Assembly (NCBI GenBank): GCA_030043175.1
Contig: JASHYD010000369.1
Span: 1-16,704 of the forward strand
Reading direction: 5' to 3'
DNA: 16,704 bases
Source of the DNA: Xanthobacteraceae bacterium
GTDB lineage: Bacteria; Pseudomonadota; Alphaproteobacteria; Rhizobiales; Xanthobacteraceae
Every line of letters begins with the position of its first letter. The first letter of the stretch is position 1. The notes beneath the pieces are model-generated. The model did no database searches and was not told where the DNA came from. It was given only the letters and a program-made list of their open reading frames with translations. Positions 1-16,253 of this stretch are shown in pieces. The position numbers and the translations under genes are program-made.

Positions 1-953
1 GCGAAGTGAAATATCTGAAGTACGATAGGGTTGACGGCAGGGGCGCCTCCACTGCTCACGGCCTCACTCGGGACGCCAACGGCGACCTCTGGTTCGATGT
101 CAATCCCGGCCGCCGCAGTCTCGGTAAGCTTGAGGCCAAGACCGACACCTTTAAGGTCTACGAGACTCCGCCTCCCATGTCGCCGCTTGGCGGCGCCGTG
201 ACGATGGACGTGGACGGCAAGGGCAAGATCTGGGCCTCGGCGCCTGATGGCGTCGTGATGTTCGACCCGGTGAGCGAGAAGTTCACCGACTTCAAGTCGA
301 AGACGCCATACCAGAACACCAAGGGCACTAACATGACCTACGGTGCCGCGGGCGACCGCGACGGCAACGGCTGGTGGGCACAGATGGCCTTCGACACCAT
401 TGGCAAGGCCGACGTGGGGACCCACTCGACCTCGGAAGTCGTGCTGCCATCGCTCAAGGACGAGATAGCGCGCATCCCGGCCCCGGCCAAGGCGTTCTAC
501 GACAGCTTCAACCAGCTGACCGTCAACAACCCGCTGCCGTGGTCGGAAGGGCCGCGTCGCATGGGCACGGACAAGAACGCCGACGTTCTGTGGGTCGGCA
601 ATTCGTGGGGCTCTTCGCTCGCCCGCATCGATACCAAGACGCTGCAGGCGACGATCGTGCCGTTCCCCGATCCTGCCTATCAGCCGTACCATATCGCGGT
701 CGACAAGACCCACGACGTGTGGTCCAACATGTGGACGACGGACCGCATCGCTCGCTACAACCCCACCACTGCGCAGTGGACGTTCTTCGACACGCCGGTT
801 CGCGGGACCGAAATCCGCCACGTCTCGCTGCTCGAGCTGCCCGGTGAGGACACCAAGGTCACCGTGCCGCTGTACCGCAACAGCAAAATGGGCGCGATGA
901 CGCTGCGCACGGAGGCCGAAATCGCGGCCCTCAAGGCGCAGGCATCGAAGTAG
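1..953 (+). CDS. Virginiamycin B lyase-like (Vgb/NHL) beta-propeller protein, 5' partial
   Basis: The frame is open from the first base, so the gene begins outside the window. The GTG at 6 is probably internal rather than a true start. The 315 visible residues carry spaced propeller-blade motifs of the form 'D-x-x-G-x-L/I-W': near residues 24-31 (DANGDLWF), 68-78 (DVDGKGKIWAS), 117-126 (DRDGNGWWAQ), 190-200 (NADVLWVGNSW) and 233-243 (KTHDVWSNMWT). These are typical of streptogramin lyase-like and SMP-30/NHL propellers. Proteins of this kind are often periplasmic. The signal peptide and any N-terminal domain are not visible, so location and substrate cannot be judged. True Vgb opens cyclic streptogramins, but most chromosomal relatives have no known substrate. 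The C-terminus (AEIAALKAQASK) looks natural, and an intrinsic terminator follows 45 bp after the stop. Confidence 0.75.
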   Translation, partial: EVKYLKYDRVDGRGASTAHGLTRDANGDLWFDVNPGRRSLGKLEAKTDTFKVYETPPPMSPLGGAVTMDVDGKGKIWASAPDGVVMFDPVSEKFTDFKSKTPYQNTKGTNMTYGAAGDRDGNGWWAQMAFDTIGKADVGTHSTSEVVLPSLKDEIARIPAPAKAFYDSFNQLTVNNPLPWSEGPRRMGTDKNADVLWVGNSWGSSLARIDTKTLQATIVPFPDPAYQPYHIAVDKTHDVWSNMWTTDRIARYNPTTAQWTFFDTPVRGTEIRHVSLLELPGEDTKVTVPLYRNSKMGAMTLRTEAEIAALKAQASK

Positions 954-1063: not shown

Positions 1064-1530
1064 GTGCAAGCCCTCTATCCGCCTGACGGCGGCGAAGGAT
1101 TAAGGCAGCGCAAGGGCGTCGCCGTAAGCCGGGGTCTGAAACAAGCGTGGTGCAAAACGCGCGGCCCGATGGACAACAGCCGTATAATGAGGCCCACCGG
1201 CGGGACGAGCGAGCATGTGAATCGCGAAGTCCACTGCCATCAAGGGCCGGGGTGGTAAATCCGGCAGGCGTGCGATTAAGGATGAAGGCGATCTTGCCTC
1301 GGGAGATCTCTGCCATGTCCCGGCAACCGGACTGAACGAGTCGCCGAGGGCATAAGCGTAGCAACCCGTTGAGGGCGTGGGAGCAGGTCCTGCGCAACAA
1401 GGGCGGTGCCCGGCGTCGATGTGGCATGACCCATCGCCAAGCTCCCGCCTGACCGAGCACTGGCCTGCGATCCCGGTTCAACTGCTTGAGGGCAGCTACA
1501 AACTGCGGCGTGCCGAGACACTGAAGGCAT
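1064..1530 (+). mobile_element. Group II intron remnant (5' ribozyme part plus start of the maturase)
   Basis: The segment starts with GTGCA (1064-1068), close to the group II 5' consensus GUGYG. The following 250 bp contain RNA-like pairing: CCT-CT-ATCC (from 1071) pairs with GGAT-TA-AGG (about 1097-1105) around an inner GCC/GGC hairpin. This fits ribozyme domain I. A reverse-transcriptase reading frame with its own Shine-Dalgarno then begins at 1315. Sequence resembling the rest of the RT, maturase domain and domains V-VI is absent, so the element is cut off after about 470 bp and cannot splice or move. It sits just downstream of a terminator hairpin, an insertion context well known for some group II introns, especially class C. 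The class of this copy is not determined. The intron call rests mainly on the RT fragment; the exact 5' boundary is less certain. Confidence 0.6.
1315..1530 (+). pseudogene. Group II intron reverse transcriptase/maturase, N-terminal fragment
   Basis: ATG 1315 follows a good Shine-Dalgarno (GGGAG, 1301-1305). Reading across frames recovers the RT domain-0 pattern. First comes NPLRAWEQVLRNKGGA (from about 1360), then a frame-disrupted G-V-D-G-M-T (about 1405-1430), then LTEHWPAIPVQLLEGSYK (about 1449-1502), then RRAETLKA, matching the family's RRVEIPKP with a few codons lost. Intact proteins of this family are roughly 400-600 residues; only about 65 remain. At least one in-frame stop (TGA 1333-1335) and two small indels near 1410 and 1425 break it. 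The RT catalytic motif (F/YADD) is not present. It is non-functional. The family call is firm because the HWPAI..LLEG(S/T)Y pattern is highly characteristic. Confidence 0.7.
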
Positions 1531-2392: not shown

Positions 2393-5300
2393 ATGGAGAG
2401 GCTATACCTTCGACTTTTCGGGACCTTCCAGCTTGAAAGCGAAGGCGGAAGGGTCTTTTCATTACCAACCAAAAAGATCAAGGCGCTGCTGGCGTATCTT
2501 GCGTTCTACGGCGGACAAGCGCATGAACGGGCCAAGCTCGCTGCTCTGCTTTGGGAAGACAGTAGAGAGATGCAAGCGCGTGAAAGCTTGCGCCAGTCTC
2601 TCAGCCTACTGCGCAAAGCTTTACCCCATCACGTGCAAGCACTGACCAGCCGTGGAGACACGGTCGAACTAAAGTCCGGATCTCTGTTGGTCGATGCCGT
2701 TGAGTTCGAGCGCCTCGCGGCAAGCGCTGATATCGTGAGCCTCGGTCAGGCTGTGCAGCTCTATCAAGGCAGATTTCTGCAAGGCTTTGATCTGCGTGCG
2801 TCCGAGTTCGAAGGCTGGGTGTCATTGGTTCGCCAGCAGCTGAACGAAAAGGCCATCAGCGCGCTGAACAAGCTGCTCTGTTATGACGTTCAGGCAGGCA
2901 ATGTCGAGCGAGGCATCACTATCGCCACCCGGCTATTGTCCCTCGATCCGCTTCAAGAAAGTGCGCATCGATCTTTGATGACGCTCTATTCTAAGCAGGG
3001 CCGATATGCAGCCGCGCTTCAACAGTATCGATTGTGCTGCGACGCCCTGTCGAAAGAACTCGCCGTGGAGCCGGAAGCTGCGACGAAAGCCCTCTATCGC
3101 GAGATTCGTGAGCAAAGAAATAGACCACATGACGAGGGGATAATTCCTGCACGAGCGAAAGCCCAGGATCGAAGAGCGCGCATTGCTGCTTTCGGGGCCG
3201 GTTATTCTGGGGCTTTTGAGAGACGGCAAATAACGATTATGGCCTGCGACTTGTTCGGATTGGATGCGCTTTCGATGCAATTCGATGCCGAGGACCTGCA
3301 GCCCGTCCTCGTCGCCTTCAGGCAAACCTATGGCGAGATCGTCTCCAACTTCGGCGGGCTGATCCGAGAGTTCTCAGGCGGCAGCATGAGGGTCTGCTTC
3401 GGCTATCCGCACGCGCATGAGCATAGCGCGGAGCAGGCGGTTCGTGCGGCCCTCGCGCTGGTCAATGCGGCGCCTCGATTGGACAGCGGCCGGGCCTCGC
3501 AAGTCCGTATCCGGGTGGGGATCGCAACCAGTAATGTGGTGATCGGCGACTTGGCCGACGAAGCTCAATCGACTCTGGCGTTGGTGGGTGAAGCGCCCAA
3601 CATCGCGATGTTACTGCAATCCGTGGCGACCCCTGGTACCGTGGTGATTTCCCAATCAACCCGTGAACTCGTCGGTGACCTTTTCGAATATGAACCTGTG
3701 GAGGCGACGGTCCGGGGGGCATTGGACTTACGGTCGGCGTGGCGTGTGCTCGGCGAACACAATAACACAAGCCGATTCGACGCGCTCCGCGGATCAGCAA
3801 CATCGACGCTCGTAGGACGCCATGCTGAAGTTGAACTGTTGGTAGCTCGCTGGCAGCGGGCCAAGGCGTCGGCAGGTCGTATAGAACTGATCAGGGGCGA
3901 CGCTGGCATCGGCAAGTCGCGCCTTGTCCGTTCCTTTCAGGAACGAATCGGGCGTGAGAGGCATCTGTGGCTACAATATCAGTTCTCACCGTTTCACACC
4001 AACAGTCCGCTCTATCCCATTGTCCGGCATATCGAACGAGCGACGGGCTTCGCGTCAGAGGATACGCCCGAGCAAAAAGGTGACAAACTTGAGGTCATGC
4101 TGGCGACGGCGGCCATGAATCTGTCGGAGACTGTTCCTCTCTTCTCGGAGCTCCTATCAATTCCGACGTTACAACGTTATCCTCCGCTGGCGCTCAATCC
4201 GGCGCAGCAGCGCCGAAAGACTCTGGAAGCCTTACTTACCCACGTTGAACGTCTGACTCGGCGCGATCCAGTGGTTATGATGTTCGAGGATGCGCATTGG
4301 GCTGACGCGAGCACCCTCGAATTCCTCAATCTTCTCGTTGAGCGCGTGCGTCGGCTCCCTGTCCTGGTATTAGCAACCCATCGGCCTGGGTTTGAGGTAG
4401 CGTGGAGCTGTCTTGACCACGTCGGCGTCATATCCCTGGCAGGCCTCAACGAAGCGGATATTCGTTCAATCATTCACGAGCTCACTGGCGAGCGCCGCCT
4501 TCCGTCGGAGCTCATCGCGCAGATCGTTCGCAAAACGGATGGCATTCCGCTTTTCGTCGAGCAATTGACAAAGACCGTCCTGGAATCGGCCGCTCTCGAG
4601 GGAGTCTCCGATCGAGCGAGCGTTCCGTTGTGGGGAATTGCAATTCCGGCAACCTTGAGGGACTCGCTGATGGCGCGGCTGGACCGCTTGGCATCAGCCA
4701 GAGATATTGCACAAGCAGGAGCGGTAATCGGCCGCGAATTTTCATTGAGGTTACTTGAGGCAACTGTCGAAGTGCCGCGCGAGCAACTCGAGGAGAGCCT
4801 CAGCAGGCTGACGGAAGCGGGTCTTCTCCATGCGCGCGAGTCGTCCGCGGAAAAATGTTATGCCTTCAAACATGCTCTTATTCAAGATGCAGCTTACGAA
4901 ACCATAGCACGGAGCAGACGACAGAATTTGCATGCCGCGGTCGCACGAGCGATCATGGAGAAATCTCCTGATGTGGTGGAACGTCAACCCGAAATCCTCG
5001 CCCATCACTACACTGAAGCCAGAATGACGGCAGAGGCTTTGGACTTCTGGTTAAAAGCCGGGAAAATGGCTGCCGGTCGCTCTGCGAATAAGGAGGCAAT
5101 TGCTCATCTGGAGAAAGGACTTGCTGTCCTCAAAGGCGCATCAATCGAGTCTCATGAACGAATGCGCTGGGAGCTGTTGTTTTTGGCAGCCGTTGGCCCT
5201 TCGGTGATGGCAATCCATGGATATGGAGCTGCGGAAAGTCAAAATGTCTTCCAAAGCGCCTACGAGCTTATAGATGAGACGACGCTCGCCCCCGAGAGAC

Positions 5301-6451
5301 TGCGCATTCTTTGCGGTCTTTGGAACGTTCGCTTTCATCGCGTAGAGCTTGGGTCTGCGCTTACTCTGGCGCAACAGTGTCTCAAGCTTGCTCAAGGCGC
5401 AGGATTTGGCGCCGATTTGGCGAATTGCCTGATGGGCCAAACGCTTTCGTCGATGGGCGAGTTCGTCATGGCACATCGCCATTTTCAGGTGGTCATCGAC
5501 AAATTCCGCGCCGGGATGCGGGATGTTGGAGGTCTATTTTCGGTTGATGAGCCTGTTTTGGCTCTGTCGTACATGGCTCGGATTCTCTGGGCCTTCGGTT
5601 ACCTGGAACGAGCAGGTGCCGCGGCGGATGAGGCGATCGCGCTCGCCCGGAAGGGGTCGAACGCGGTCACCGTCGCGGCGGCCCTCGTCGCACGCATGTA
5701 TACGGCTCTCCATGGAGCGCCGTTGCAGGAACCCATTTCTCACGCCGACGAAGCCATCGCTTATTGCAAGGAACACGAGTTATCACTTTTCGAACACTGG
5801 ATCCGTTTTGCGCGCGGCGGGTTCCTGGTTCGCGAAGGCGACACGGCCGCCGGAATCGAGGCGATGCGGGCCGCTATCGTGGGTGCGGAGTTGCGGCAAA
5901 GCCACCAATTTCGTCCGTTTCAGCTCGCCTGCTTAGGCGCGGCATACGAGCAACTTGGTAATTCCAGCCAGGCTGTTGCAACGCTCGACGAGGCACTCTC
6001 CACGGCTGAAGCGGGAGGCGAAAAGCAGTCGTTGGCGGCGATACATCGGCTTCGCGGCGAAGTTCTTTTCAACCTGGGACAAAGTAGCGAAGCACGGCAT
6101 GCGCTCAGTCGCGCTTTAGAGATTGCGCGCCGTCAGGGAACGCGCCTTGAAGAACTTCGCGCGGCGATGGTACTGGCGCGACACGCGGTGGACTTGGATA
6201 GTGAAGATACGCGCCAAGTACTGATCAACGTCTATTCTACATTCGAAGAAGGGCACAGTTTGCCTGACCTACGCGCCGCGCGCGATCTCCTCTATCTACT
6301 AGGCGATCAAAGGTGCCGCTCTGGACCCGCCCAGCTTCACCGGACGCCGACAGACCTTGATAACCGTGCGATGGCGAGCGCGGGTGCCAACAACTCCGGA
6401 GGACCAGCTCAGAAATTCAACGCCAGAACACAGCGTCCCCCTGAGGTATGA
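2393..6451 (+). CDS. Large BTAD / cyclase-like / AAA-type ATPase / TPR regulator
   Basis: The product has 1352 residues. Residues 1-245 match the SARP/BTAD arrangement: a winged-helix-like head (LYLRLFGTFQ, then KIKALLAYLAF) followed by the helical BTAD region (DPLQESAHRSLMTLYSKQGRYAAALQQY lies within 185-212). Residues 277-450 are a class III nucleotide cyclase domain opening ERRQITIMACDLFG. It keeps the first metal Asp (D286), but the second is replaced (SGGS at 328-331 where GDG is expected) and the transition-state Arg is Leu (L407 in NIAMLLQ), so it is probably not catalytic. Residues 470-860 are a STAND/AAA-like ATPase with Walker A GDAGIGKS (502-509) and Walker B VVMMFED (627-633). Residues about 862-1300 are TPR-like helical repeats, and the last 45 look disordered. 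No signal peptide or membrane segment is seen, so it is likely cytoplasmic. The start is supported because the BTAD head begins at once. Probable role: a signal-integrating transcription factor; target unknown. Confidence 0.85.
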   Translation: MERLYLRLFGTFQLESEGGRVFSLPTKKIKALLAYLAFYGGQAHERAKLAALLWEDSREMQARESLRQSLSLLRKALPHHVQALTSRGDTVELKSGSLLVDAVEFERLAASADIVSLGQAVQLYQGRFLQGFDLRASEFEGWVSLVRQQLNEKAISALNKLLCYDVQAGNVERGITIATRLLSLDPLQESAHRSLMTLYSKQGRYAAALQQYRLCCDALSKELAVEPEAATKALYREIREQRNRPHDEGIIPARAKAQDRRARIAAFGAGYSGAFERRQITIMACDLFGLDALSMQFDAEDLQPVLVAFRQTYGEIVSNFGGLIREFSGGSMRVCFGYPHAHEHSAEQAVRAALALVNAAPRLDSGRASQVRIRVGIATSNVVIGDLADEAQSTLALVGEAPNIAMLLQSVATPGTVVISQSTRELVGDLFEYEPVEATVRGALDLRSAWRVLGEHNNTSRFDALRGSATSTLVGRHAEVELLVARWQRAKASAGRIELIRGDAGIGKSRLVRSFQERIGRERHLWLQYQFSPFHTNSPLYPIVRHIERATGFASEDTPEQKGDKLEVMLATAAMNLSETVPLFSELLSIPTLQRYPPLALNPAQQRRKTLEALLTHVERLTRRDPVVMMFEDAHWADASTLEFLNLLVERVRRLPVLVLATHRPGFEVAWSCLDHVGVISLAGLNEADIRSIIHELTGERRLPSELIAQIVRKTDGIPLFVEQLTKTVLESAALEGVSDRASVPLWGIAIPATLRDSLMARLDRLASARDIAQAGAVIGREFSLRLLEATVEVPREQLEESLSRLTEAGLLHARESSAEKCYAFKHALIQDAAYETIARSRRQNLHAAVARAIMEKSPDVVERQPEILAHHYTEARMTAEALDFWLKAGKMAAGRSANKEAIAHLEKGLAVLKGASIESHERMRWELLFLAAVGPSVMAIHGYGAAESQNVFQSAYELIDETTLAPERLRILCGLWNVRFHRVELGSALTLAQQCLKLAQGAGFGADLANCLMGQTLSSMGEFVMAHRHFQVVIDKFRAGMRDVGGLFSVDEPVLALSYMARILWAFGYLERAGAAADEAIALARKGSNAVTVAAALVARMYTALHGAPLQEPISHADEAIAYCKEHELSLFEHWIRFARGGFLVREGDTAAGIEAMRAAIVGAELRQSHQFRPFQLACLGAAYEQLGNSSQAVATLDEALSTAEAGGEKQSLAAIHRLRGEVLFNLGQSSEARHALSRALEIARRQGTRLEELRAAMVLARHAVDLDSEDTRQVLINVYSTFEEGHSLPDLRAARDLLYLLGDQRCRSGPAQLHRTPTDLDNRAMASAGANNSGGPAQKFNARTQRPPEV

Positions 6452-6649
6452 TCAACATCTGTGAGTGTGGCGAGAACCTGGAGAAGCTCGCGTTGATTAG
6501 CCGAGGAAGCAAGGACCTGAACCGCTCGGTACGGGTCGTTTGTTCATGAGCGCAAGATCTCAGAAGAGTTATGGCGGCGTCTGACTGTCATTCTGCTGGT
6601 CGATATACATATAGTCAGTTCCCCTATTATATACTATACGTGGGTAACC
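6452..6649. other. Intergenic stretch downstream of the large regulator
   Basis: No gene is recognised. From about 6600 the sequence turns AT-rich (TATACATATAG, ATTATATACTATA), unlike the rest of the window, and leads into the candidate sRNA promoter. No intrinsic terminator for the large regulator is obvious directly after its stop. Confidence 0.4.
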
Positions 6650-6700
6650 GTTTCATTTGATGAAAACCACTTTGACATGGGCGATCTAGTATGCTCTGAT
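6650..6700 (+). promoter_or_regulatory. Sigma-70-type promoter with an adjacent inverted repeat
   Basis: A perfect TTGACA -35 box (6672-6677) is separated by 17 nt from TCTGAT (6695-6700), a 4-of-6 match to TATAAT. Start of transcription would be near 6706. A perfect inverted repeat, TTTCAT-TTG-ATGAAA (6651-6665), ends 6 nt before the -35 box and could be an operator. An AT-rich stretch just upstream could act as an UP element. Boxes were read by eye. Confidence 0.5.
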
Positions 6701-6705
6701 AGAAC

Positions 6706-6797
6706 TCAGTGTGAGGTTCTCCTCCACCGTCTTCACAGTTACGCCTACCTTCTCCAACTTCAGACACTTCTAGGTTAAGCCTAGAGGTGTCTTTTTC
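6706..6797 (+). ncRNA. Candidate trans-acting small RNA with an anti-Shine-Dalgarno loop
   Basis: A promoter (6672-6700) and an intrinsic terminator (6763-6796) bracket about 90 nt with no start codon followed by a sensible frame. Near the 5' end, TGTGA (6710-6714) can pair with TCACA (6733-6737), holding TCTCCTCC (6718-6725) in the loop. A second pyrimidine-rich stretch, CCTTCTCCAAC, follows at about 6748-6758 in a single-stranded linker, then the terminator stem. A loop showing CUCCUCC next to a strong 3' terminator is the layout of rhizobial sRNAs with anti-Shine-Dalgarno loops (the alpha-r14 or 'cuckoo' type, and the Bjr RNAs of Bradyrhizobium), which act on ribosome-binding sites. I cannot assign it to a named family from sequence alone. 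It lies between the large regulator and the pseudogene debris. Confidence 0.55.
6763..6796 (+). terminator. Strong rho-independent terminator of the sRNA candidate
   Basis: GACACTTCTAGG (6763-6774), loop TTAAG (6775-6779), CCTAGAGGTGTC (6780-6791), then TTTTT (6792-6796). The stem is 12 bp with a single T-G wobble. No protein-coding gene ends close upstream; the nearest stop is more than 300 bp away, so a short non-coding transcript is the natural client. Confidence 0.85.
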
Positions 6798-7022
6798 TGT
6801 GGTCCATTGCAAAGTGGCTCGCCTTGAGACTTCGCGGTTGATCAGACTCACCGCAAACCTTGATCGCGTGCCGTCGGCTCGAGTCATTCAAGAGGCTGCA
6901 AGTTATTCCAGGCGCTGCGGGAGCGTTATCGATCGCGGCGTGAAACAAATGCATCATCAGCCGCCCACAGACGCGTGAGATCGGCCTTGTGTGCGGTGGA
7001 CCGTTCCGGGAGTTTACTGGGT

Positions 7023-7155
7023 TTAGTCATTGATTGATGGAAGCCCTGCATTACCGAGATGCTCGTCTGCGGGCAGATCAGCCCATGCGTTATCCGATCT
7101 CGCGCGCTGAAGTGCGAGTCCTTCGTAGATCTTCGGATCGGCGAAGGTGTCTGTG
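7023..7155 (-). pseudogene. Tail and leader of a second AhpD-like gene, decayed
   Basis: Read on the minus strand, 7155-7078 encodes DTFADPKIYEGLALQ. This matches NTFADPKIYEGHALQ near the C-terminus of the intact AhpD-like gene at 10468-11085. One base is then missing relative to the intact gene, which shifts the frame away from the expected 'GYxM(S/G)-stop'; the DNA still aligns through the TGA (7080-7078). About 27 bp further on, ATGCAGGGCTTCCATCAATC (from 7051 downward) resembles the leader just before the intact gene (ATGCAGGCGTTCGATCAATC, from 10408), with about 24 of 30 bases alike by hand alignment. So this scar keeps the end of one gene copy and the start of a following one, with the middle gone. 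It is not functional. Confidence 0.6.
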
Positions 7156-7256
7156 GGGATAGCGCGTGCAACGCAGTCGGATTCGGGCGAATCTGGTGCA
7201 ATCAAGATTCGGACCGCCCGACACCATTGGTTTTCAGACGACAGAACGAGGCAGGT

Positions 7257-7929
7257 ATGGGCCGGGAGGATCGGGTTTGGTTCGTTCTGGCGCATCGTCC
7301 GGATTCGGGCGAGCACTGGCGCAAGCGGTGATCGCCCGCGGCGAGCGGGCGGTCGTGACAGCGCGGCGGCGCGGCGCGCTGGCTGCATTGGCGGCAATTG
7401 ACGACGCTCGCATCTTGGCCGTGCCTCTGGATGTCGCGGATGCCGTGGCACGCAAGGCGGCGCTGGTTGCAGCGTTGGCTAGGTTTGGCCGCATCGACGT
7501 GTTGGCGAACATCGCCGGTCGTGGCTCGCGCGGGGCGGTGGAGGAGTTCGCCTCCGAGCAATAATGGAGCTGAACTTCTTCGCGGCGGCGGAACTGACCC
7601 GGGAGGTGCTGCCCCACATGCGCAAGCTGGGCGCGGGCCGCATCCTCAACCTCACCAGCATTGGCGGGTTGATCTCGATCGGCGGCTTGGGTGCATACTG
7701 CGCCTCGAAGTTCGCCCTCGAAGGCTGGAGCGAGGCGCTGGCCGATGAGGTCTCGGCGCTTGGAATAAGCGTCACATTGGTTGAGCCAGGCAACTTCCGC
7801 ACGGAGTTCGCCGGCGACGCCAATATGCGGCCGACCACGCCGCTCGAAGCCTATCGCGGGGTGATTGGGCCGGTCGAAGACTTCCTCTATGGCCAAAGCG
7901 GGCGTCTCGCTCCGATGGCGCGGGCGTGA
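7257..7929 (+). pseudogene. Short-chain dehydrogenase/reductase (SDR), broken by frameshifts
   Basis: ATG 7257 opens MGREDRVWFV. One base is lost near 7284-7290 where the SDR motif TGASSGFG should follow; GASSGFGRALAQAVIARGE then continues in another frame, with the later IDVLANIAG corresponding to the NAG motif. A second lesion at 7561-7566 removes about four codons and shifts the frame, producing TAATG. The next frame reads MELNFFAAAELTREVLPHM and keeps the active-site Ser (NLTSIGG) and YxxxK (YCASKFALEGW). The final part ends early at 7929 and lacks the usual C-terminal helices. Intact relatives are about 270-290 residues and use NAD(P)H to reduce or oxidise carbonyl/hydroxyl groups. At least two frame breaks make a working enzyme unlikely. 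The 8-residue spacing to the original start and the GAGGCAGG before it suggest 7257 was the ancestral start. Confidence 0.8.
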
Positions 7930-8117
7930 CCACATCCGCAGAGGCGGCCTCGTCAAGCCCGAGCGAGCCTTCGCCCCCTTCGCGGTAATTCCGTCTCACT
8001 CGGCCGCACGGGTCGTCGGCAGCATATTCGGAAAGAGCGCGTCACGATTGATGGAAACTGGGTACTACGCGATCGCCGTGAGCGGTATGAGGACGAGTAC
8101 AATGACCGGAGGATCCG

Positions 8118-9188
8118 ATGAGCGCGACGGTGGAACGAGCTGATGCTTTCTGTGCCCGCTTCGGCCTGCGGGTGCCTATCCTGCTCGCCCCTATGGCTGG
8201 CGCGAGTGCGCCCTCCCTTTCGATCGCCGTGGCCAATGCCGGCGGGCTCGGATCGTGCGGGGTGCTGCTGATGCAACCGGACGAAATCATCGCCTGGGCA
8301 AATGAGGTGCGTTCGAACAGCAACAGCGCATTCCAGCTCAATAATTGGATCCCCGACCGTCCACCGCAGCGCGATCGAGCACACGAGGCACGCGTGCGTG
8401 ATTTTCTGGCCAACTGGGGACCATCGGTGCCGCCAGAAGCCGGCGACGCGACACCGCCGGATTTCCCGGCCCAATGCGAGGCGATGCTCGCAGCGGGGCC
8501 ACCGATAATCTCGTCTGTCATGGGTCTTTACCCGCCCGAGTTCGTCGCTCGGCTGAAGGCAAGGAGCATTGTCTGGTTTGCTAATATCTCGACAGTATCG
8601 GAGGCGCGAGCTGCTGAAAGCGCCGGCGCGGATGTGATTGTGGCTCAGGGCTCTGAAGCCGGCGGGCATCGGGGTTGTTTCGATGCCGTCGCGGCTGAGC
8701 GTCAACAGGTTGGCTTGTTCGCCTTGCTACCGGCCGTCGTAGATGCGGTGCGTGTGCCGGTCGTCGCGACAGGCGGCATTGCAGATGCACGTGGCGTCGC
8801 GGCGGCGTTGATCCTTGGCGCTAGTGCAGCGCAAATCGGCACTGGCTTTCTGCGCTGTCCCGAGGCCACGATTCCCCCAGCCTGGGCGGCGGCACTCGCC
8901 GCAACGGCCCCGGAGGACACGATGGTGAGCCGCGTCTTCAGCGGCCGCGCCGGCCGCAGCATTGCCACGGATTATGTCCGAGCCGCGAGCGCAGCCGACG
9001 CACCCTCGCCGGCACCATATCCGGTGCAGAGGGGACTGACAGCGGCGATGCGCTCGGCGGGCCAAAGGCAAGGTGACGTGCACCGTATGCAGGCTTGGGC
9101 CGGCCAATCGGCGGCTCTCGGGAAGGCGGAGCCAGCAGCCGATCTCCTGCAACGAATCTGGAACGGGGCGCAAGCTCTTCTGGCGTAA
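8118..9188 (+). CDS. Nitronate monooxygenase (2-nitropropane dioxygenase family)
   Basis: This 356-residue FMN-dependent TIM-barrel enzyme would oxidise alkyl nitronates (such as propionate 3-nitronate or nitroalkane anions) to carbonyl compounds and nitrite in the cytoplasm. The motifs run in family order: APMAG (24-28), GGLGSCG (42-48), AQGSEAGGHRG (176-186) with catalytic-type H184, ATGGIADARG (217-226) and AAQIGTGFL (237-245), the last two binding phosphate. The length suits the family. The start has GGAGG (8108-8112) 5 nt before ATG 8118. It is complete, while its upstream neighbour (an SDR pseudogene) is broken. No operon partner remains, since an IS remnant lies downstream. A related acyl-carrier-protein enoyl-reductase function (FabK-like) is a less likely alternative. 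No signal peptide is seen. Confidence 0.88.
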   Translation: MSATVERADAFCARFGLRVPILLAPMAGASAPSLSIAVANAGGLGSCGVLLMQPDEIIAWANEVRSNSNSAFQLNNWIPDRPPQRDRAHEARVRDFLANWGPSVPPEAGDATPPDFPAQCEAMLAAGPPIISSVMGLYPPEFVARLKARSIVWFANISTVSEARAAESAGADVIVAQGSEAGGHRGCFDAVAAERQQVGLFALLPAVVDAVRVPVVATGGIADARGVAAALILGASAAQIGTGFLRCPEATIPPAWAAALAATAPEDTMVSRVFSGRAGRSIATDYVRAASAADAPSPAPYPVQRGLTAAMRSAGQRQGDVHRMQAWAGQSAALGKAEPAADLLQRIWNGAQALLA

Positions 9189-9350
9189 AAATACTCAGGT
9201 ATTGCCCGCTATTTGCTAGGGCCTGTCCTACTGAATCGAAACGGCAACGGATCGGAATCGTATGGGGGAATATCTTTTTCGATGCCGGTGCGAATGCGAT
9301 TTCGGGCTCACGAATCATCGATTGTCTGGCTCCTGGCAGGTCGGTTTGAG

Positions 9351-9600
9351 GAGGGCCGACCGACGAAGCGCTTTGGCTTACGCGACGACCAATGGGGAAT
9401 CGGTCTGCCGGGTCGCGAAGGCCATGTCGAAGGGCGGCGCCGGATAACCGGCTGTTCGTTGAAGCTGTTCTGTACCGGTTGAGAACCGGTATTCCGTGGC
9501 GCGATCTGCCGGCGCGCTTCGGCTATTGGAAGAGCGTGCATCAGCGCTTCAGTCGCGGGCGAAGAGCGGGGCTTTGAGCTGATTTTCCAGTGTTGGCGGC
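9351..9600 (+). mobile_element. IS5-family (IS427-type) transposase remnant
   Basis: Conserved pieces appear in order but in different frames. RFGLRDDQW (from about 9369) is followed after a deletion by PGREGHV, then a shift by one base to [38 protein letters not shown] (to about 9556), and in yet another frame the trace of W-A-K-S-G and FQCLAA (to about 9600). This is the N-terminal domain (DUF4096-like) of IS5/IS427-group transposases. The catalytic DDE part is absent. Intact elements are about 800-900 bp; about 250 bp are left. Terminal inverted repeats are not evident; GGGCCTGTCC at 9220 could be a left end but has no partner. Confidence 0.75.
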
Positions 9601-10467
9601 GCCGTCGCATCTGTTGCGGCGCAGTGCACTGGATGCGAAATGCAACTTGAGAAAGGAGAGGCCGAACCGCAAGTGCCACAGCGATACTTCCGCCAACTGG
9701 AAAGCAACGGCCCGATGTCCATAGCGAAGGGGGACCTATCCCGTGTCGGGTGTGCGGCGGACACCTTCACCTTCCCGGTTATATTCGAAGACTCATGGGG
9801 AACTGAGCGTGATTGCAAAAGACAGTAATGGCCCGCCGCTGCGATCCGCTCCAACGCGGTTCACGCCACAGTCGTGAAAATACTTTCAACTCATATCCCG
9901 TTTGGGAGTGGACTGGGCACGAACACGAGAGAAAGCCATTCTCAGCGAAGGATAATTGGAGTGTTACTTCGATTGAGGGGAGCCTTAACGTGCGCTTTAT
10001 CTTGTCTCTACTAGTAACCGGCCTCTTGGCCATAGCGGTGCCGCCGTGTCGCAGATAGCCCCGCGGGTCGGCCTCTACGCACTCCTGGGGACGCTCGCGG
10101 GTGCGGTCGCATCCGGGATGCTGTTGTGGGTCCTGATGCTGCTGTGATGCGGGGCCGAGGGCCTACCACAGTCCTGTCCAGCGACCATTCGATGGGGTGT
10201 CGAGGACGGCGGTGCTCATCATCTGGCTATCAATCTCGCTGGGCGCTGCTTTCGGCTTTTGCTAGAGAAGTGGATCGTTGTCACTCGATGCACGTTAGCC
10301 CGCAAATCTTTGGTTCCGAATCGCGAGAGCGTTGTACGGCTGTGGCAGGCTAAATACCACTCCGAATGTGAATACCTTTACATACGCCGCGCGTGTGTAC
10401 CAACATGATGCAGGCGTTCGATCAATCCATGACTGAGCTTTCTCATCCCAATTCCGGAGCCAACATT
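9601..10467. other. Long stretch of decayed sequence before the AhpD-like gene
   Basis: About 870 bp without an intact recognisable gene. It follows the IS427-type remnant and includes one possible broken small membrane-protein gene (9990-10147, listed separately). From 10207 a short frame reads TAVLIIWLSISLGAAFGFC before a stop, another hydrophobic scrap. The leader of the AhpD-like gene (from 10393) is partly repeated at 7023-7053 on the other strand. I see no tRNA, array or terminator here. Confidence 0.4.
9990..10147 (+). pseudogene. Possible small membrane protein, frameshifted
   Basis: GTG 9990 follows GGGGAG (9977-9982, 7-nt spacing) and opens VRFILSLLVTGLLAIAVP, a clean hydrophobic helix, then stops at 10058. 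In the frame shifted by one base, from 10046, the text continues SQIAPRVGLYALLGTLAG and AVASGMLLWVLMLL to a stop at 10145-10147, a second membrane helix. Together these would make a two-helix protein of about 52 residues, or the tail of a permease. The family is not recognised. The frame break suggests decay, or a sequencing error. Confidence 0.3.
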
Positions 10468-11085
10468 ATGATTACGCTCGCAAACACCGCGCGACGGCAA
10501 GCTGAAAGGGAGGCTCGTTCGAAAGAGGCACCTATCCTGGAAGACCTTCCCGATCTTCCGGGCATCATCTGCGCCATGCAGTTGGCGCCGGGACTGAAGG
10601 AGCACCTTTGTGGTCTGGCGAATGTGCTGCTTACCGATCCCTTTCCTGGGGCGACGATCTCGCGCACCGAGAGGGAGCTGCTGGCGACCGCTGTCTCGGC
10701 CCAAAACGCCTGTTTCTTCTGCGCGGATTCGCACGGCGCCGTTGCCGCCGCTCTGATGCGGCGGGACGGGATCGCTGATTCGGCGGTCATCGCTGACAGC
10801 GTCGCAGGCGGGAGTGTGGCCGCGCTGTCGTCGAAAATGGCGGCCCTTCGCGAGATCGCCGTGACGGTTGCGGTCGACGCACGCCGGCTGTGCGCCCAAC
10901 AGGCGACACAAGCCCTCGCCGTAGGTGCATCTTCCGGCGACGTGAAGCTCGCGATCCTCATCGCATCCGCGTTCAGCATGTATAACCGGATGGTTGACGG
11001 GTTGAAGGCCAATACCTTCGCCGATCCGAAGATCTACGAAGGTCATGCGCTTCAGCTTGCCGAGATGGGCTACCGGATGAGCTGA
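10468..11085 (+). CDS. AhpD-like / carboxymuconolactone decarboxylase family peroxidase-related protein
   Basis: The product has 205 residues from ATG 10468, which has GGAG (10456-10459) 8 nt upstream. A longer reading from 10393 or 10405 is open but lacks a ribosome site. The AhpD core is clear: E70 (TEREL), then C82-F-F-C85 and H89 in ACFFCADSHG. This is the E/CxxC/H proton-relay and thiol centre of the AhpD/CMD fold, and the length fits 'uncharacterised peroxidase-related enzyme' members. Such proteins reduce peroxides or act as thiol-disulfide partners in the cytoplasm. The exact substrate is unknown. A helix with MYNRMVDGLKANTFADPKIYEG closes the protein. Convergent with the aminotransferase 281 bp downstream. 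A decayed inverted copy of its last 80 bp and of its leader occurs at 7023-7155. Confidence 0.85.
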   Translation: MITLANTARRQAEREARSKEAPILEDLPDLPGIICAMQLAPGLKEHLCGLANVLLTDPFPGATISRTERELLATAVSAQNACFFCADSHGAVAAALMRRDGIADSAVIADSVAGGSVAALSSKMAALREIAVTVAVDARRLCAQQATQALAVGASSGDVKLAILIASAFSMYNRMVDGLKANTFADPKIYEGHALQLAEMGYRMS

Positions 11086-11366
11086 TCTTGGTCGCCGCGG
11101 CAGGTGATGCGTTCGGTGGGGGCTATTGGGACGTAAGCGGTGTGACGATTTGTGACGATCCGGGAACGGGAATACGAGCGGCGGCGCATCGCCAGGCCTG
11201 TTATTGCGGCGGTTGCAGTTAAGCCGTCACACGAACCGGCGATTCCAGATACGTAAAGAGCAGCCCGACCATTCCCTGCGCCTTCGAATCGCACGAGATC
11301 ATCTGGCAGGAACCTCGTCGCTATCGCACGACGATGACGCCCAGGAGGACTTCGCCCAGACATGGC
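11086..11366. other. Convergent intergenic region without a recognised gene
   Basis: This 281-bp gap separates two convergent genes. It holds a 10-bp tandem repeat (11141-11160) and an inverted match, CGTCACA, at 11225-11231. No clear bidirectional terminator was found. A minus-strand frame ending in LLFTYLESPVRVTA (about 11219-11260) looks protein-like, but I could not assign it. Confidence 0.35.
11141..11160 (+). repeat. Tandem 10-bp direct repeat
   Basis: TGTGACGATT is followed directly by TGTGACGATC, with one mismatch at the end. CGTCACA, the inverse of TGTGACG, occurs 65 bp further on (11225-11231). This could be a protein-binding array or chance. Confidence 0.4.
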
Positions 11367-12548
11367 CTAAGGGATCCCGGCTAGTTCCTTCTTCTTGTCG
11401 CTGGCGCGGGCGAACACATCGAGCGCCGCATTCACCGCAGCCCCGTCCTCGAACGCGTAGCCCTCCTGTCGGATCACCGTTTCGAACGCTCGGAGGGCGT
11501 CAACCATGTCAGTCTCGGAAAAGGCGCCCATCGTTCCCCAACGCCACATCTTGCCGGCCATCTTGCCCTGTCCGCCGGAGATCACCACGCCGTGCTCGTC
11601 GAGCAATTTCGCCAAGATTGCCCCGTTATTGAGGCCGCGCGGCGTCAAGATGCCCGTGACGGTGACCGAATGCACGCCGTCGCGTGAGAAAACCTCCATC
11701 CCGAGCGCCTTTACGGCTCGTTGGAGCGCGACAGTGTAGCGCGCGTGACGGGCCCAGACGTTGCGGCCACCTTCTCTTTCGTACAGATCGATTGCGACGT
11801 CGAGTGCAAAGGTGACCGAGACCGGAGGCGTCCATGGCGGCTCGCCCTTTTCGAAGAACTCTTTATGCTTCTGTAGATCAAAGTAGAAGCGCGGCGCCTT
11901 GTTCGCTTTGATCTTCTCCCATGCGCGCGCACTCACCGCGACCATGGCGAGTCCCGGCGGGCACGCAAGCGCCTTTTGCGACGCAGCGCAAACGATATCG
12001 AGCCTCCATTCGTCCATCTTGAATTCGCTTGCACCCAAGCCGCTCACTGAGTCGACAACGATGTACGCGGGGTGATCTCCGATCGCACGTGACATCGTTC
12101 CCAAGTCGATTTGCACGCCGGTGGACGTCTCGTTGTGCGTCAACAGGATGCCCGTGATCTTCTTCTCGTGATCGGCCCGCAGCCTCGCAGCCAGGGCTTC
12201 GGCGTCGACCCCGGCGCCCAAGGGCGTCTCGAGCGTCTCGACGGTGCAACCCCACATCTTAGCGATCGCGGCGATTCGCTCGCCGAAGACGCCGGTCGGG
12301 CAGGCGAGAAGCGTGTCGCCAGGACCGAACATGTTCGTTACCGCCGCTTCGAGGCTGCCCGTTCCCGACGCCCCTATCAACAGCACATCGCCGTTCGTCG
12401 CAAAGATCGGCTTCATGCGATCCGCGATACGATGGAGCAGGCGGGCGTATTCGGGGCCGCGATGATTGATCAACGGCTTCGCCATCGCGGCCAGCACGGG
12501 CTCGGAAACTGCAACGGGTCCGGGGATGAACAACAGGCTCTTTGGCAT
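11367..12548 (-). CDS. Class V PLP aminotransferase (alanine/serine-glyoxylate aminotransferase type)
   Basis: This 393-residue fold-type I PLP enzyme would move an amino group from an amino acid (alanine, serine or a ureido/phosphono amine) to a keto acid such as glyoxylate or pyruvate. The N-terminal FIPGPVAVSEPVL is the family signature for this subgroup. SGTGS (61-65) contacts the PLP phosphate, HNETSTG (138-144) precedes D166 (VVDSVSG, PLP-ring Asp), and K192 (CAASQKAL) is the Schiff-base Lys. The start at 12548 is chosen because MPKSLLFIPGP begins the conserved domain; the upstream reading to 12641 adds 31 residues that look non-coding. Its Shine-Dalgarno (GGGAA) is weak and distant. 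A 9-bp inverted repeat lies 22 bp upstream. PucG-like ureidoglycine or 2-aminoethylphosphonate activity cannot be separated from AGAT by eye. Confidence 0.85.
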   Translation of the reverse strand: MPKSLLFIPGPVAVSEPVLAAMAKPLINHRGPEYARLLHRIADRMKPIFATNGDVLLIGASGTGSLEAAVTNMFGPGDTLLACPTGVFGERIAAIAKMWGCTVETLETPLGAGVDAEALAARLRADHEKKITGILLTHNETSTGVQIDLGTMSRAIGDHPAYIVVDSVSGLGASEFKMDEWRLDIVCAASQKALACPPGLAMVAVSARAWEKIKANKAPRFYFDLQKHKEFFEKGEPPWTPPVSVTFALDVAIDLYEREGGRNVWARHARYTVALQRAVKALGMEVFSRDGVHSVTVTGILTPRGLNNGAILAKLLDEHGVVISGGQGKMAGKMWRWGTMGAFSETDMVDALRAFETVIRQEGYAFEDGAAVNAALDVFARASDKKKELAGIP

Positions 12549-12569
12549 AAGTACAAATTCCCGTAAATG

Positions 12570-12615
12570 CACAGATGACGTGCCGGATCTCGCATGCAGC
12601 CTTAGTTCATCTGTG
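12570..12615. promoter_or_regulatory. Inverted repeat upstream of the aminotransferase, possible operator
   Basis: CACAGATGA (12570-12578) and its exact inverse TCATCTGTG (12607-12615) lie 28 bp apart, beginning 22 bp before the aminotransferase ATG (12548). Centres are about 37 bp apart, so the two half-sites are about three and a half helical turns apart. The right arm is also part of a tighter palindrome, TTCA-TCTG-TGAA. This fits a dimer-binding regulator, but none is identified. Confidence 0.45.
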
Positions 12616-13299
12616 AATTGATTGCTATTATTATCACGCACTCATGCAAAGGCTCGCCATCACCGCGATGTGATCAACGTCCGACGTCGATGCACACCGA
12701 CAAATGGTTCAGGTCGGCGATCGAATGGACCCCTGCGGTGCGGCCGTGCGATCTTTGCGTCCGAATCTGGCTTGCAGGAGATATTGGGGCGCAACGGCCT
12801 CAGCGCGAGCACGCACTTGATTGCCCCCAAAGCGCGGTCTCCTGTCGGAGGCGGCCAACGGTCGTTTCTCCTCGTGGCCTGTCCGGGTGGGCGCCCAAGC
12901 GGCCTCGAATGGGCTGACCGCGCCGAGGGCGACCATTGCCGGCGTCCACTCAGTTGGTCCGCATCTCGAACCTGGAGCCCCGAGATCCTGCCACCCTCTA
13001 CAAACTTGGGCTTGTCCGAATCCGCGAATGCACCCAACGCCGCTGTCACCAGTCCCACCCGGGATGGCTGCTATGGCCAATTCCTGGATGTGGCATCCAC
13101 CATATCCCAGTCGCAGCATCTCAGCCCGCTTGGCAAACAGTACCTAGCTCGCGGCGGCTGCCTCCGTCATGTAGTGATAGACTGGCGGGTATATCAACAG
13201 TCGGCCTTTCACGGGCGATAGAAGACCTTCGGCATCAGCTTCAGCACGCCGCGAAGTGCGCTGAAAGCCTTTGAAGCGATCAAGGTGGAGCGAGTTGCG
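12616..13299. other. Intergenic stretch without a recognised gene
   Basis: About 680 bp separate the divergent aminotransferase and amidohydrolase. Open frames of 100-200 codons cross it on both strands (for example 12622-13221 plus, 12709-13119 minus), but none shows a known motif, a convincing ribosome site or a sensible composition. They are probably chance frames in GC-rich DNA or eroded genes. The downstream end holds the amidohydrolase ribosome site. Confidence 0.4.
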
Positions 13300-13314
13300 A
13301 TGTTTGAAGCGATC
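13270..13314 (+). repeat. Short direct repeat around the amidohydrolase start
   Basis: TTTGAAGCGATC occurs at 13270-13281 and again at 13303-13314, a 12-base exact match 33 bp apart. The second copy is inside the coding sequence just after ATG 13300, and the ribosome site lies between them. It looks like a small local duplication. Confidence 0.55.
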
Positions 13315-14832
13315 CCGGCCGGAACCACCTTGCTGTTGAAAGGTGGGCAGGTGCTGACGCCGGACACGGATTGGAACGATCCACCGCGGGCCGACGTTGC
13401 GATCGCCGGCGACAAGATAGTCGGCATTTGTCCAGACTACAGGCCGGACGACGCCCGAAACATGGAGACGATCAACGCCCGCGATCACCTGGTGCTGCCG
13501 GGTTTTGTAAACGCGCACTACCATTCCCATGACGTCCTTGCTAAGGGGACCCTCGAAGAGGTCCCGCTCGAGATGTGGCGGCTTTATGCGCTGCCACCCC
13601 GATTCCCGCCGCGCTCTGTGGAAGAGATTTACGCACGGACACTGTTGGGTGCCCTCGAGTGCTTGCGATCGGGGATGACGACCATCCAAGACATGCTGAC
13701 GCTCTATCCATACGAGGATCGTCACATGGATGCGGTGATGAAGGCCTACGAGGAGATCGGCATCCGCGTGGTGTTCGCCCTGCAATATGCTGATCGCCGG
13801 GGCATCGAAACCATTCCATTCTGGAAGGATACCTTTCCGGCCGATCTTCATCCGTTGTTGTCGACCGCCGCCGAGCCGGAACGCCAGCTCGATCTGATCG
13901 GGCACTTCGAGACGACGCGCCTCAGATCCCCTCCACCGCGACGGGTATCCTGGGCACTTGGACCATCCGCGCCGGAGCGGTGCTCGCCGGCTCTCATGCA
14001 GCGGACCGTGGCCTTGGCACGTCGTTACGACCTGCCGATCTACACCCATATCTACGAATCGCGCGGCATGGCGCTGCAGGCGCGCTTATCCCTGCCGGAA
14101 TACAGCGGTCTTCTCATGCGCCGATTGGACGAGGAAGGCGTTCTCGATCGGCGGTTCAATTTTGCTCACAGCGTCTGGCTCTCGCGCGAGGAGATCGAGC
14201 TCTTGGCCGAGCACGATGCGGGCGTCGTGCTCAATCCTCAAGGCAACTTGAAAATGAAATGCGGCATCGCGCCGATCCGCGCGCTGCAAGATGCCGGCGT
14301 ACGGATTGGGCTCGGCTGCGATAATTGTAGCTGCTCCGATGCGCAAAATATGTTCATGGCAATGAAGCTCTTCGCGTTGCTGGCTGCGGTCATCGATCCA
14401 ATTCCGGGCCCGCCGCAAGCTGTCACAGCCCTGCGTGCCGCCACTGAAGGCGGCGCCGATGGTGCAAGACTGGGCGATGTGCTCGGACGCATTGCTCCGG
14501 GCTTCAAGGCTGACCTGACACTGATCGACTTGCAGGACCCGACATTCTCGCCGATGAACAGTGCGGCGCGCCAGCTCGTTCACATTGAAGCTGGGCGCGG
14601 CGTGCGCCATGTCATTGTCGAAGGCAAGGTCGTGGTGCGGGATGGGCGCCTGACTACGGTCAGCGAATCGACGATCTATGATGCGGTCAAGGCGGTGATG
14701 CCGAAGTTCAGACGCGATTTCGCGACTATCTCGCAAGGCGTCGCCAAGCTGCAGCCCTGGCTCGATCGCGCCCATCGCCAGATCATGGCGGCCGAGCTTG
14801 ATATCGAGCGTCTTCCCTTTGGAAGCGGTTGA
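13300..14832 (+). CDS. Amidohydrolase family protein (deaminase/chlorohydrolase type)
   Basis: This 510-residue metal-dependent hydrolase of the ATZ/TRZ and S-adenosylhomocysteine/guanine deaminase-like branch would hydrolyse C-N (or C-Cl) bonds of amine-bearing ring or chain substrates in the cytoplasm. Zinc ligands are visible in order: H73 and H75 in GFVNAHYHSHD, H250 and E253 in YTHIYES, H290 in NFAHSVWL and D341 in GLGCDNCSCSD. The C-terminal small beta domain (GRIAPGFKADLTLIDL) is intact. ATG 13300 is preferred: GGAG at 13287-13290 sits 9 nt upstream, while the earlier GTG 13285 overlaps that site. The substrate is unknown; triazine, guanine, hydantoin-like or methylthioadenosine-like compounds are all possible. 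It is divergent from the aminotransferase, and a Bug receptor gene follows on the same strand 443 bp later, so the pair may serve one uptake-and-cleavage pathway. Confidence 0.88.
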   Translation: MFEAIPAGTTLLLKGGQVLTPDTDWNDPPRADVAIAGDKIVGICPDYRPDDARNMETINARDHLVLPGFVNAHYHSHDVLAKGTLEEVPLEMWRLYALPPRFPPRSVEEIYARTLLGALECLRSGMTTIQDMLTLYPYEDRHMDAVMKAYEEIGIRVVFALQYADRRGIETIPFWKDTFPADLHPLLSTAAEPERQLDLIGHFETTRLRSPPPRRVSWALGPSAPERCSPALMQRTVALARRYDLPIYTHIYESRGMALQARLSLPEYSGLLMRRLDEEGVLDRRFNFAHSVWLSREEIELLAEHDAGVVLNPQGNLKMKCGIAPIRALQDAGVRIGLGCDNCSCSDAQNMFMAMKLFALLAAVIDPIPGPPQAVTALRAATEGGADGARLGDVLGRIAPGFKADLTLIDLQDPTFSPMNSAARQLVHIEAGRGVRHVIVEGKVVVRDGRLTTVSESTIYDAVKAVMPKFRRDFATISQGVAKLQPWLDRAHRQIMAAELDIERLPFGSG

Positions 14833-15106: not shown

Positions 15107-15275
15107 AGGGCAACGGGAACGCGCGGCACCACGGAGGTCCTTTCGATTCTGCTAGACCTTCGAACCGCGAGCAGCATCACCATCTTCGATGTGGTAGATT
15201 TACCTTGGTGTTTAGCTCGTCCACTTCGTTGCGGGTGTGGCCGGCTCGGGGTGCGCAAGCTTGCGGAGCATCGTT

Positions 15276-16253
15276 ATGACCATATCCCGTCGTCGCGCGT
15301 TGCATCTGACTGCCGGCACGGCCGCCGCCTCAATTGTTTCCGCGGCCGCAAAGGGGCAAGGCTATCCGTCGCGGCCGATTCGTTTCATCGTTCCCTTTCC
15401 ATCCGGCGGCGTGAGCGACATCATCGCGCGCTTGATGGGTCAAAGGCTGTCAGAGCGATTGGGGGAGCCATTCGTGATTGAAAATCGGGGAGGTGCCGGG
15501 AGCAATCTCGGTACGGAGACCGTCGTGAAGGCGCCTCCAGACGGACACACCGTGCTCCTCGATGGTTCGGCGAACGCGGTCAACGCGACGCTCTACACGA
15601 ACCTCAGTTTCAATTACCTTCGCGATATTATGCCAGTGGCCAGCATGTTCCGCGCGCCCCATTTCATGGAGGTCCATCCGTCCTTTCCCGCCGCGACGGT
15701 TCCAGAATTCATTGCTTACGCAAAGGCTCACCCGGGCCGGACTAACATGGCATCCGCCGGCATCGGGACGATATCCCATATGGCAGGCGAACTCTTCAAT
15801 ATGATGACCGGCATCGCGCTGACGCACGTGCCCTATCGTGGGGCCGCGTCCGCGCTGACCGACCTCCTCGGCGGACAGATCCAGGTCATGTTCGACAATG
15901 CGGCCTCCTCGACTGCCCATATCCGCGCGGGCCGACTGCGCGCGCTCGCGGTGACCGCCTCGACGCGCGTCGATGCTCTCCCGGACGTGCCAACCGTGGC
16001 AGAGTTTGTTCAAGGCTACGAGGCGAGCAACGTCAATGGCATCGGCGTGCCTGTGAGGACGCCTGCAGACATCGCCGCCAAGATCAACGCTGAGGTCGAC
16101 GGCATCCTCGGCGATCCCTTCATCAAGGCCCGATTTGCCGAGCTTGGAGGCACAGTGATGGTTGGATCACCGGCTGACTACAGAATATTCCTGGCTGGTG
16201 AAACGCAGAAATGGGCCAGGGTTGTGAAGGCTGCGGGTCTCAAGCCGAGTTGA
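15276..16253 (+). CDS. Bug/TctC-family tripartite tricarboxylate transporter substrate-binding protein
   Basis: This 325-residue periplasmic receptor binds a small carboxylate or related molecule and hands it to a TctAB-type permease. ATG 15276 has GGAG (15265-15268) 7 nt upstream; the longer frame from 15237 lacks that. The first 26 residues form a Tat-like signal (SRRRALHLTAG, then a hydrophobic stretch and AAAKGQG). The family core follows: YPSRPIRFIVPFPSGG (30-45), NRGGAGSNLGTE (70-81), ASAGIGTISHMAGELF (159-174), HVPYRGAASALTDLLGGQIQ (184-203) and LPDVPTVAE (235-243). The length is normal. TctA and TctB are not in the window; orphan Bug receptors are common in beta- and alphaproteobacteria. 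Its ligand may relate to the amidohydrolase upstream. Confidence 0.9.
   Translation: MTISRRRALHLTAGTAAASIVSAAAKGQGYPSRPIRFIVPFPSGGVSDIIARLMGQRLSERLGEPFVIENRGGAGSNLGTETVVKAPPDGHTVLLDGSANAVNATLYTNLSFNYLRDIMPVASMFRAPHFMEVHPSFPAATVPEFIAYAKAHPGRTNMASAGIGTISHMAGELFNMMTGIALTHVPYRGAASALTDLLGGQIQVMFDNAASSTAHIRAGRLRALAVTASTRVDALPDVPTVAEFVQGYEASNVNGIGVPVRTPADIAAKINAEVDGILGDPFIKARFAELGGTVMVGSPADYRIFLAGETQKWARVVKAAGLKPS

What the first reader, a model, noticed from the sequence alone, without database searches (positions are those of the whole stretch)
6650..6797. Candidate rhizobial-type sRNA with anti-Shine-Dalgarno loop, between own promoter and terminator
A consensus -35 box, a 17-nt spacer and a -10-like box lead after about 90 nt to a 12-bp terminator with a T-run, with no gene in between. 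TGTGA/TCACA can fold to show TCTCCTCC in the loop, and a second pyrimidine stretch follows. This is the layout of rhizobial sRNAs that pair with ribosome-binding sites. A 6-bp inverted repeat next to the -35 box suggests regulation.
Basis: partly seen in the sequence, partly recalled or inferred. Interest (0 to 1): 0.75.

Follow-up and report, generated by a model that had tools for sequence, protein, structure and literature searches.

The report
Unproven orphan small-RNA gene candidate
A short stretch between two genes of an uncultured bacterium has a plausible start and a very strong stop signal for a small RNA, but no relative of it was found and it lacks the hallmarks of the known rhizobial families it was compared with, so it stays an ordinary, untested candidate.

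Summary
The signals are there. TTGACA-17-TCTGAT (6672-6700, TGn before the -10) is the only promoter-like site of 10/12 or better in the window on either strand; 3.3% of shuffles of the 310 nt before the terminator hold one as good. The terminator (6762-6792: 14 pairs, 12 Watson-Crick, then Ts) is far beyond chance (0 of 5000 shuffles). The family reading fails: no Rfam match; the alpha-r14 hallmark, three hairpins each with CCUCCUCCC, is absent; the anti-SD core is about 92% paired in the predicted fold. Conservation could not be shown: no homologue in the genomes sampled, and no genome of the host is held. Best reading: a lineage-specific, independently transcribed ~92-nt sRNA (about 0.5). 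Main rival: the terminator ends the upstream regulator's transcript and the promoter is chance. One oddity: 6713-6730 is the exact complement of a codon string for TVEENL in Liv-type ABC-transporter ATPases, so most short matches in relatives fall there. It may be coincidence, or a seed for ABC-transporter mRNAs.

The parts
6651..6665 (.). 6-bp inverted repeat TTTCAT-TTG-ATGAAA next to the -35 box; meaning untested
   Evidence: sequence
6672..6700 (+). sigma-70-type promoter candidate: TTGACA, 17 nt ending in TGC, TCTGAT
6706..6797 (+). proposed transcript, about 92 nt (start inferred from the promoter, end from the terminator)
   Evidence: inference
6710..6737 (+). weak hairpin that can expose UCUCCUCC (6718-6725); competes with a hairpin that pairs its core
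6713..6730 (-). 18 nt whose minus strand equals a codon string for TVEENL of Liv-type ABC ATPases; overlaps the complement of the anti-SD octamer
6762..6797 (+). intrinsic terminator, 14-pair stem (6762-6792) and T-run (6792-6796)
2393..6451 (+). upstream neighbour: BTAD/SARP - class 3 adenylate cyclase - ATPase - TPR regulator; the conserved part shared with 16 aligned relatives ends near residue 1303 (about 6302), the frame runs on to 6451

Best explanation
The stretch is a small stand-alone transcription unit. A sigma-70-type promoter at 6672-6700 starts an RNA near 6706, which ends at the strong intrinsic terminator 6762-6797. The RNA is about 92 nt, has no evident coding frame and carries a pyrimidine-rich middle (UCUCCUCC...CCUUCUCC) that could pair with ribosome-binding sites of mRNAs. 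Shown: promoter and terminator sequence signals and absence of an evident gene. Inferred: transcription, end points, base-pairing action and any chaperone. It appears to be private to its lineage.
For: Only promoter-like site of 10/12 or better in the window, with an extended -10. Terminator beyond chance: 0 of 5000 shuffles. The two are about 60 nt apart (-10 to stem) on one strand. Transcript fold z = -4.5, which the long terminator stem largely explains. In 20 of 20 distant homologues of the upstream gene no terminator-like stem of 7+ Watson-Crick pairs lies within 600 nt of the stop (the scan does find the window's own), so it is not a fixed part of that gene; the weight is small, as such stems occur only 14 times in 290 kb of those loci. 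New sRNAs of B. japonicum were mostly genus-specific (PMC5082802, passages), so lack of relatives is usual for such genes.
Against: No homologue found, so no conservation evidence. The -10 lacks its usual A at position 2 (importance of that base recalled). The anti-SD core is about 92% paired in the predicted full-length fold. No RNA data. The single octamer is common by chance. Duplexes with start regions of six genes of the window are not outstanding: of 10 positions tried the best ranks 43 of 500 random stretches; two of the 10 were not on a start codon.
Confidence: 0.5

Rival explanations
1. The terminator ends the transcript of the upstream BTAD/cyclase regulator (3' UTR of about 310-460 nt), and the promoter-like site is a chance match in an AT-rich gap.
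For: It is the only terminator-like stem with 8 or more Watson-Crick pairs on the + strand after the one at 998-1026. A promoter match this good occurs in 3.3% of shuffles, and its -10 is imperfect.
Against: Exact TTGACA with 17 nt and TGn. Distant homologues carry no such terminator downstream: 0 of 20, but these 20, taken from 80 loci, are only 36-40% identical and may be paralogues, and the test is weak.
Confidence: 0.3
2. A leader or attenuator of a gene that once lay downstream and has decayed (the broken SDR at about 7190-7930 or lost DNA); the RNA is a by-product.
For: The downstream SDR is split over frames. A 20-codon GTG frame ends inside the terminator stem.
Against: The predicted folds show no antiterminator (not searched further), no ribosome-binding site is seen by eye before the GTG, no Rfam riboswitch or leader matches, and about 390 nt lie between terminator and SDR.
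Confidence: 0.12
3. Debris of a mobile element or decayed gene that happens to keep a terminator.
For: The window holds a group II intron piece, what looks by eye like a transposase remnant, a broken SDR and inverted pieces of a CMD gene at 7025-7148.
Against: 6303-7190 has no match in plasmid records, and 6303-7200 none at E up to 0.001 in 150 related genomes.
Confidence: 0.05

Closest known systems
alpha-r14 / NfeR1 (cuckoo RNA group) of rhizobia
   Same: Short intergenic RNA with sigma-70-type promoter and an anti-SD-like stretch (PMC10746234, passages)
   Different: Lacks the three hairpins with CCUCCUCCC; about 92 nt instead of 123; -10 TCTGAT instead of CTATAT; no Rfam match
AbcR1/AbcR2 of Sinorhizobium (review PMC7143759, passages)
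   Same: CU-rich anti-SD-like stretches; in the bold reading also aimed at ABC-transporter mRNAs
   Different: No Rfam match; AbcR RNAs have three stem loops with two aSD motifs, bind Hfq and lie in tandem between SMc01226 and lsrB; here one unstable hairpin plus terminator beside other genes
Genus-specific BjsR sRNAs of Bradyrhizobium japonicum (PMC5082802, passages)
   Same: Orphan sRNAs, most of them without homologues outside their genus
   Different: Those were detected as transcripts; this one is sequence only, in another and unnamed species

Membership tests
alpha-r14 (NfeR1) | Three hairpins, each with unpaired CCUCCUCCC | tested here: not met
   CCTCCTCCC with up to 1 mismatch has 2 matches in the window (168-176 and 1379-1387), neither in 6650-6797; one weak hairpin plus terminator
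alpha-r14 (NfeR1) | Match to a curated Rfam model | tested here: not met
   Nothing but unrelated chance-level families at 6650-6797 (E up to 5 for the window; E up to 10 for 6580-6830); whether alpha-r14 has a model in the library was not checked
[quoted passage not shown]
   Has TTGACA-N17-TCTGAT, similar -35, different -10; the 29-nt stretch was not compared
AbcR | Partial homology to SuhB RNA (Rfam RF00519) | tested here: not met
   No such match
AbcR | Location beside lsrB | tested here: not met
   Neighbours are a BTAD regulator and a broken SDR
AbcR | Hfq binding | not testable with these tools
stand-alone intergenic trans-sRNA (general) | Own promoter and intrinsic terminator, no evident coding frame | tested here: met
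   Sequence signals only
stand-alone intergenic trans-sRNA (general) | Transcript of the expected size | not testable with these tools
   No RNA data for this contig
stand-alone intergenic trans-sRNA (general) | Conservation of loop and terminator in relatives | tested here: inconclusive
   No homologue in the sampled genomes, and no genome of the host held

The most novel reading that the evidence does not exclude
The RNA is a trans-acting regulator whose seed is not a generic anti-Shine-Dalgarno but the complement of the conserved codons for TVEENL (about 20-28 nt within 6704-6734) in Liv-type ABC-transporter ATPase genes, so that one RNA could silence many amino-acid uptake operons inside their coding sequence.
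Probability: 0.05. Interest if true: 0.6.

Novelty: new member of a known kind. Interest (0 to 1): 0.25.

Why it matters
If transcribed, it adds one more lineage-specific sRNA from an uncultured relative of Bradyrhizobium. If its long match to ABC-transporter ATPase codons is functional, it would be an unusual way of choosing targets, by the codons of a conserved protein motif rather than by ribosome-binding sites, and that can be tested directly by a reporter assay.

Tried and rejected
Homology. Exact 22-mer scan of genome contigs and viral contigs: 0 hits each. blastn of 6655-6800 in 12 genomes: 11 of 12 with weak matches at E up to 1, and 24 of the 26 places listed overlap one short stretch. 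The same in 200 relatives: 3 of 200 at E up to 0.005, all on that stretch. 6640-6810 in 347 genomes of the order: 0 of 347 at E up to 0.001. blastn against plasmid records: 19 of 72,556 records at E up to 10, best E 0.5. Covariance model R1, built on this one sequence, in 150 relatives: 9 of 150 at E up to 1; the best, E 0.008 per genome and so about 1 over 150, aligns without most of the terminator stem and by eye looks like coding sequence. With many genomes per call few first-look candidates per genome were scored (2-4), so weak homologues could be missed.

ABC pseudogene. tblastn of 23 ABC-type frames against 6303-7190 gives around TVEENL only alignments of about 11-35 residues, best E 0.03, so a gene remnant is not supported.

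Chance for the TVEENL word. A reversed copy of the query matches in 3 of 12 genomes against 11 of 12 (a single control). A profile of 11 distinct codon strings finds 6713-6730 as the sole good site (30.4 bits, next 10.7); 0 of 1000 intergenic and 0 of 60 window shuffles reach it. This is circular in part, because some of those strings come from loci fetched for matching this very query, and the profile was chosen after seeing the hit. By database E-values (best 0.007 per genome over 12; 0.001 over 200) the match is near chance.

Others. Local target search with starts of window genes: nothing outstanding (two of its 10 positions were not start codons). Upstream-gene terminator in homologues: none in 20 of the 80 loci, a weak test. 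The terminator scan counted no G-U pairs and missed the stem; one search replaced it. Papers: PMC10746234, PMC7143759, PMC5082802 and PMC4842269 were seen as passages; other papers only as search listings. PMC4615179 (cuckoo RNA) is not held.

Full report
What the window is. No whole genome is held for the window. The upstream protein is listed on a single contig of 16,704 bases, the length of the window, so the window is probably a lone metagenome contig. Its genes resemble those of Bradyrhizobium's family (Xanthobacteraceae in GTDB, name recalled): 2300-14900 matches 32 of 296 genomes of the family of G001 (a Bradyrhizobium, L001) at E up to 1e-20, 65-84% identical, with 2 candidates scored per genome. 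No tRNA was found. Genes, left to right: SGL/Vgb-like lyase (6-953 +), a group II intron piece (1118-1289 +, Rfam E 2e-16), a BTAD / adenylate cyclase / ATPase / TPR regulator (2393-6451 +), a short-chain dehydrogenase split over frames (about 7190-7930 +), nitronate monooxygenase (8118-9188 +), CMD-family protein (10393-11085 +), class V aminotransferase (11367-12641 -), amidohydrolase (13285-14832 +), TctC receptor (15237-16253 +).

The observation. The promoter-like site TTGACA-17-TCTGAT at 6672-6700 is the only one in the window, on either strand, with 10 or more of 12 consensus bases, and it has TGC before the -10. Its -10 lacks the A at position 2, which the tool's own scan requires. In shuffles of the 310 nt before the terminator, 3.3% contain a site as good and 0.9% one with an exact TTGACA; for the whole gap it is 4.3%. 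So the promoter alone is modest evidence. For comparison, the RpoD signature reported for alpha-r14 promoters is CTTAGAC-N17-CTATAT (PMC10746234, passages), and that for B. japonicum is TTG-N(16-18)-TATA (PMC4842269, passages); the -10 here agrees poorly with both.

The terminator is strong: 14 pairs with two G-U, a 3-nt loop and five T (stem 6762-6792, T 6792-6796). Stems with at least 12 Watson-Crick pairs and a T-run occurred in 0 of 5000 shuffles of the gap, and none was counted in 300 shuffles of the whole window. The lax scan shows no general excess of terminators in the window (10 against 14.3 expected); it is the length of this stem that is unusual. The only other terminator-like stem in the window with 8 or more Watson-Crick pairs is at 998-1026.

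The fold. 6703-6797 folds at -30.2 kcal/mol, z -4.5, largely the terminator. TCTCCTCC is expected 0.65 times per shuffled window.

Relatives. Rfam gave nothing relevant for the stretch. The exact 22-mer across the loop is absent from genome contigs and viral contigs. blastn of the unit found only short words: 11 of 12 genomes at E up to 1, 3 of 200 at E up to 0.005, 0 of 347 genomes of the order at E up to 0.001. 6303-7200 gave 0 of 150 relatives at E up to 0.001, and 6303-7190 nothing in the plasmid records. A model built on this one sequence gave matches at E up to 1 in 9 of 150 genomes; the best was looked at and rejected. Because no genome is held in which the unit is known to occur, these empty answers cannot refute it. 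Most of the new sRNAs of one B. japonicum study were genus-specific (PMC5082802, passages).

The unexpected match. In one search, 24 of the 26 places listed overlap the stretch at about 6712-6731. In 24 of the 35 loci fetched for such words the opposite strand there codes for TVEENL or a close variant. By eye, 23 of these 24 have the context of ABC-transporter ATPases, mostly of the Liv type; the exception is L110. The minus strand of 6713-6730 equals the best-scoring of 11 distinct codon strings. The similarity stays local, so a gene remnant is not supported. A reversed query gave 3 of 12 genomes instead of 11 of 12. Since the motif recurs in the genomes, was picked after the fact, and the profile rests partly on loci fetched with this query, coincidence remains the default. 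Known anti-SD sRNAs of rhizobia do target ABC-transporter mRNAs, but through the translation initiation region (PMC10746234 and PMC7143759, passages), so the bold reading is kept at about 0.05.

Neighbouring transcripts. The part of the upstream protein shared with 16 aligned relatives ends near residue 1303 (about 6302), while the frame here runs to 6451. The terminator thus lies about 310-460 nt downstream and could still end that mRNA. Of 20 distant homologues (of 80 loci; 36-40% identical), none shows a terminator-like stem of 7 or more Watson-Crick pairs within 600 nt of its stop. The same scan does find the window's terminator, but it finds only 14 stems in 290 kb of these loci, so this is a weak argument.

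Verdict. A real promoter-terminator layout, confirmed; an sRNA gene, plausible (0.5) and unproven; alpha-r14 or AbcR membership, not met. Interest is low to moderate.

Noticed in passing
window 7025-7148, minus strand: Inverted pieces of the CMD gene at 10393-11085: 7075-7148 matches 11014-11088 at 84%, 7025-7051 matches 10408-10434 at 85%; probably a decayed second copy.
   Followed up: partly
window 9304-9598: Reads by eye like a frame-broken IS5-type transposase start (no Pfam match for two frames there); matched by four related genomes at 71-77% DNA identity.
   Followed up: partly
window 1118-1289: Group II intron D1-D4 domain, Rfam E 2e-16, about 90 nt after a strong terminator at 998-1026; an intron reverse transcriptase was not searched for.
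   Followed up: no
window 7190-7930: Short-chain dehydrogenase split over several frames: pseudogene or assembly error.
   Followed up: no
window 6303-6451: The upstream regulator's frame runs about 50 residues past the part shared with its relatives.
   Followed up: partly
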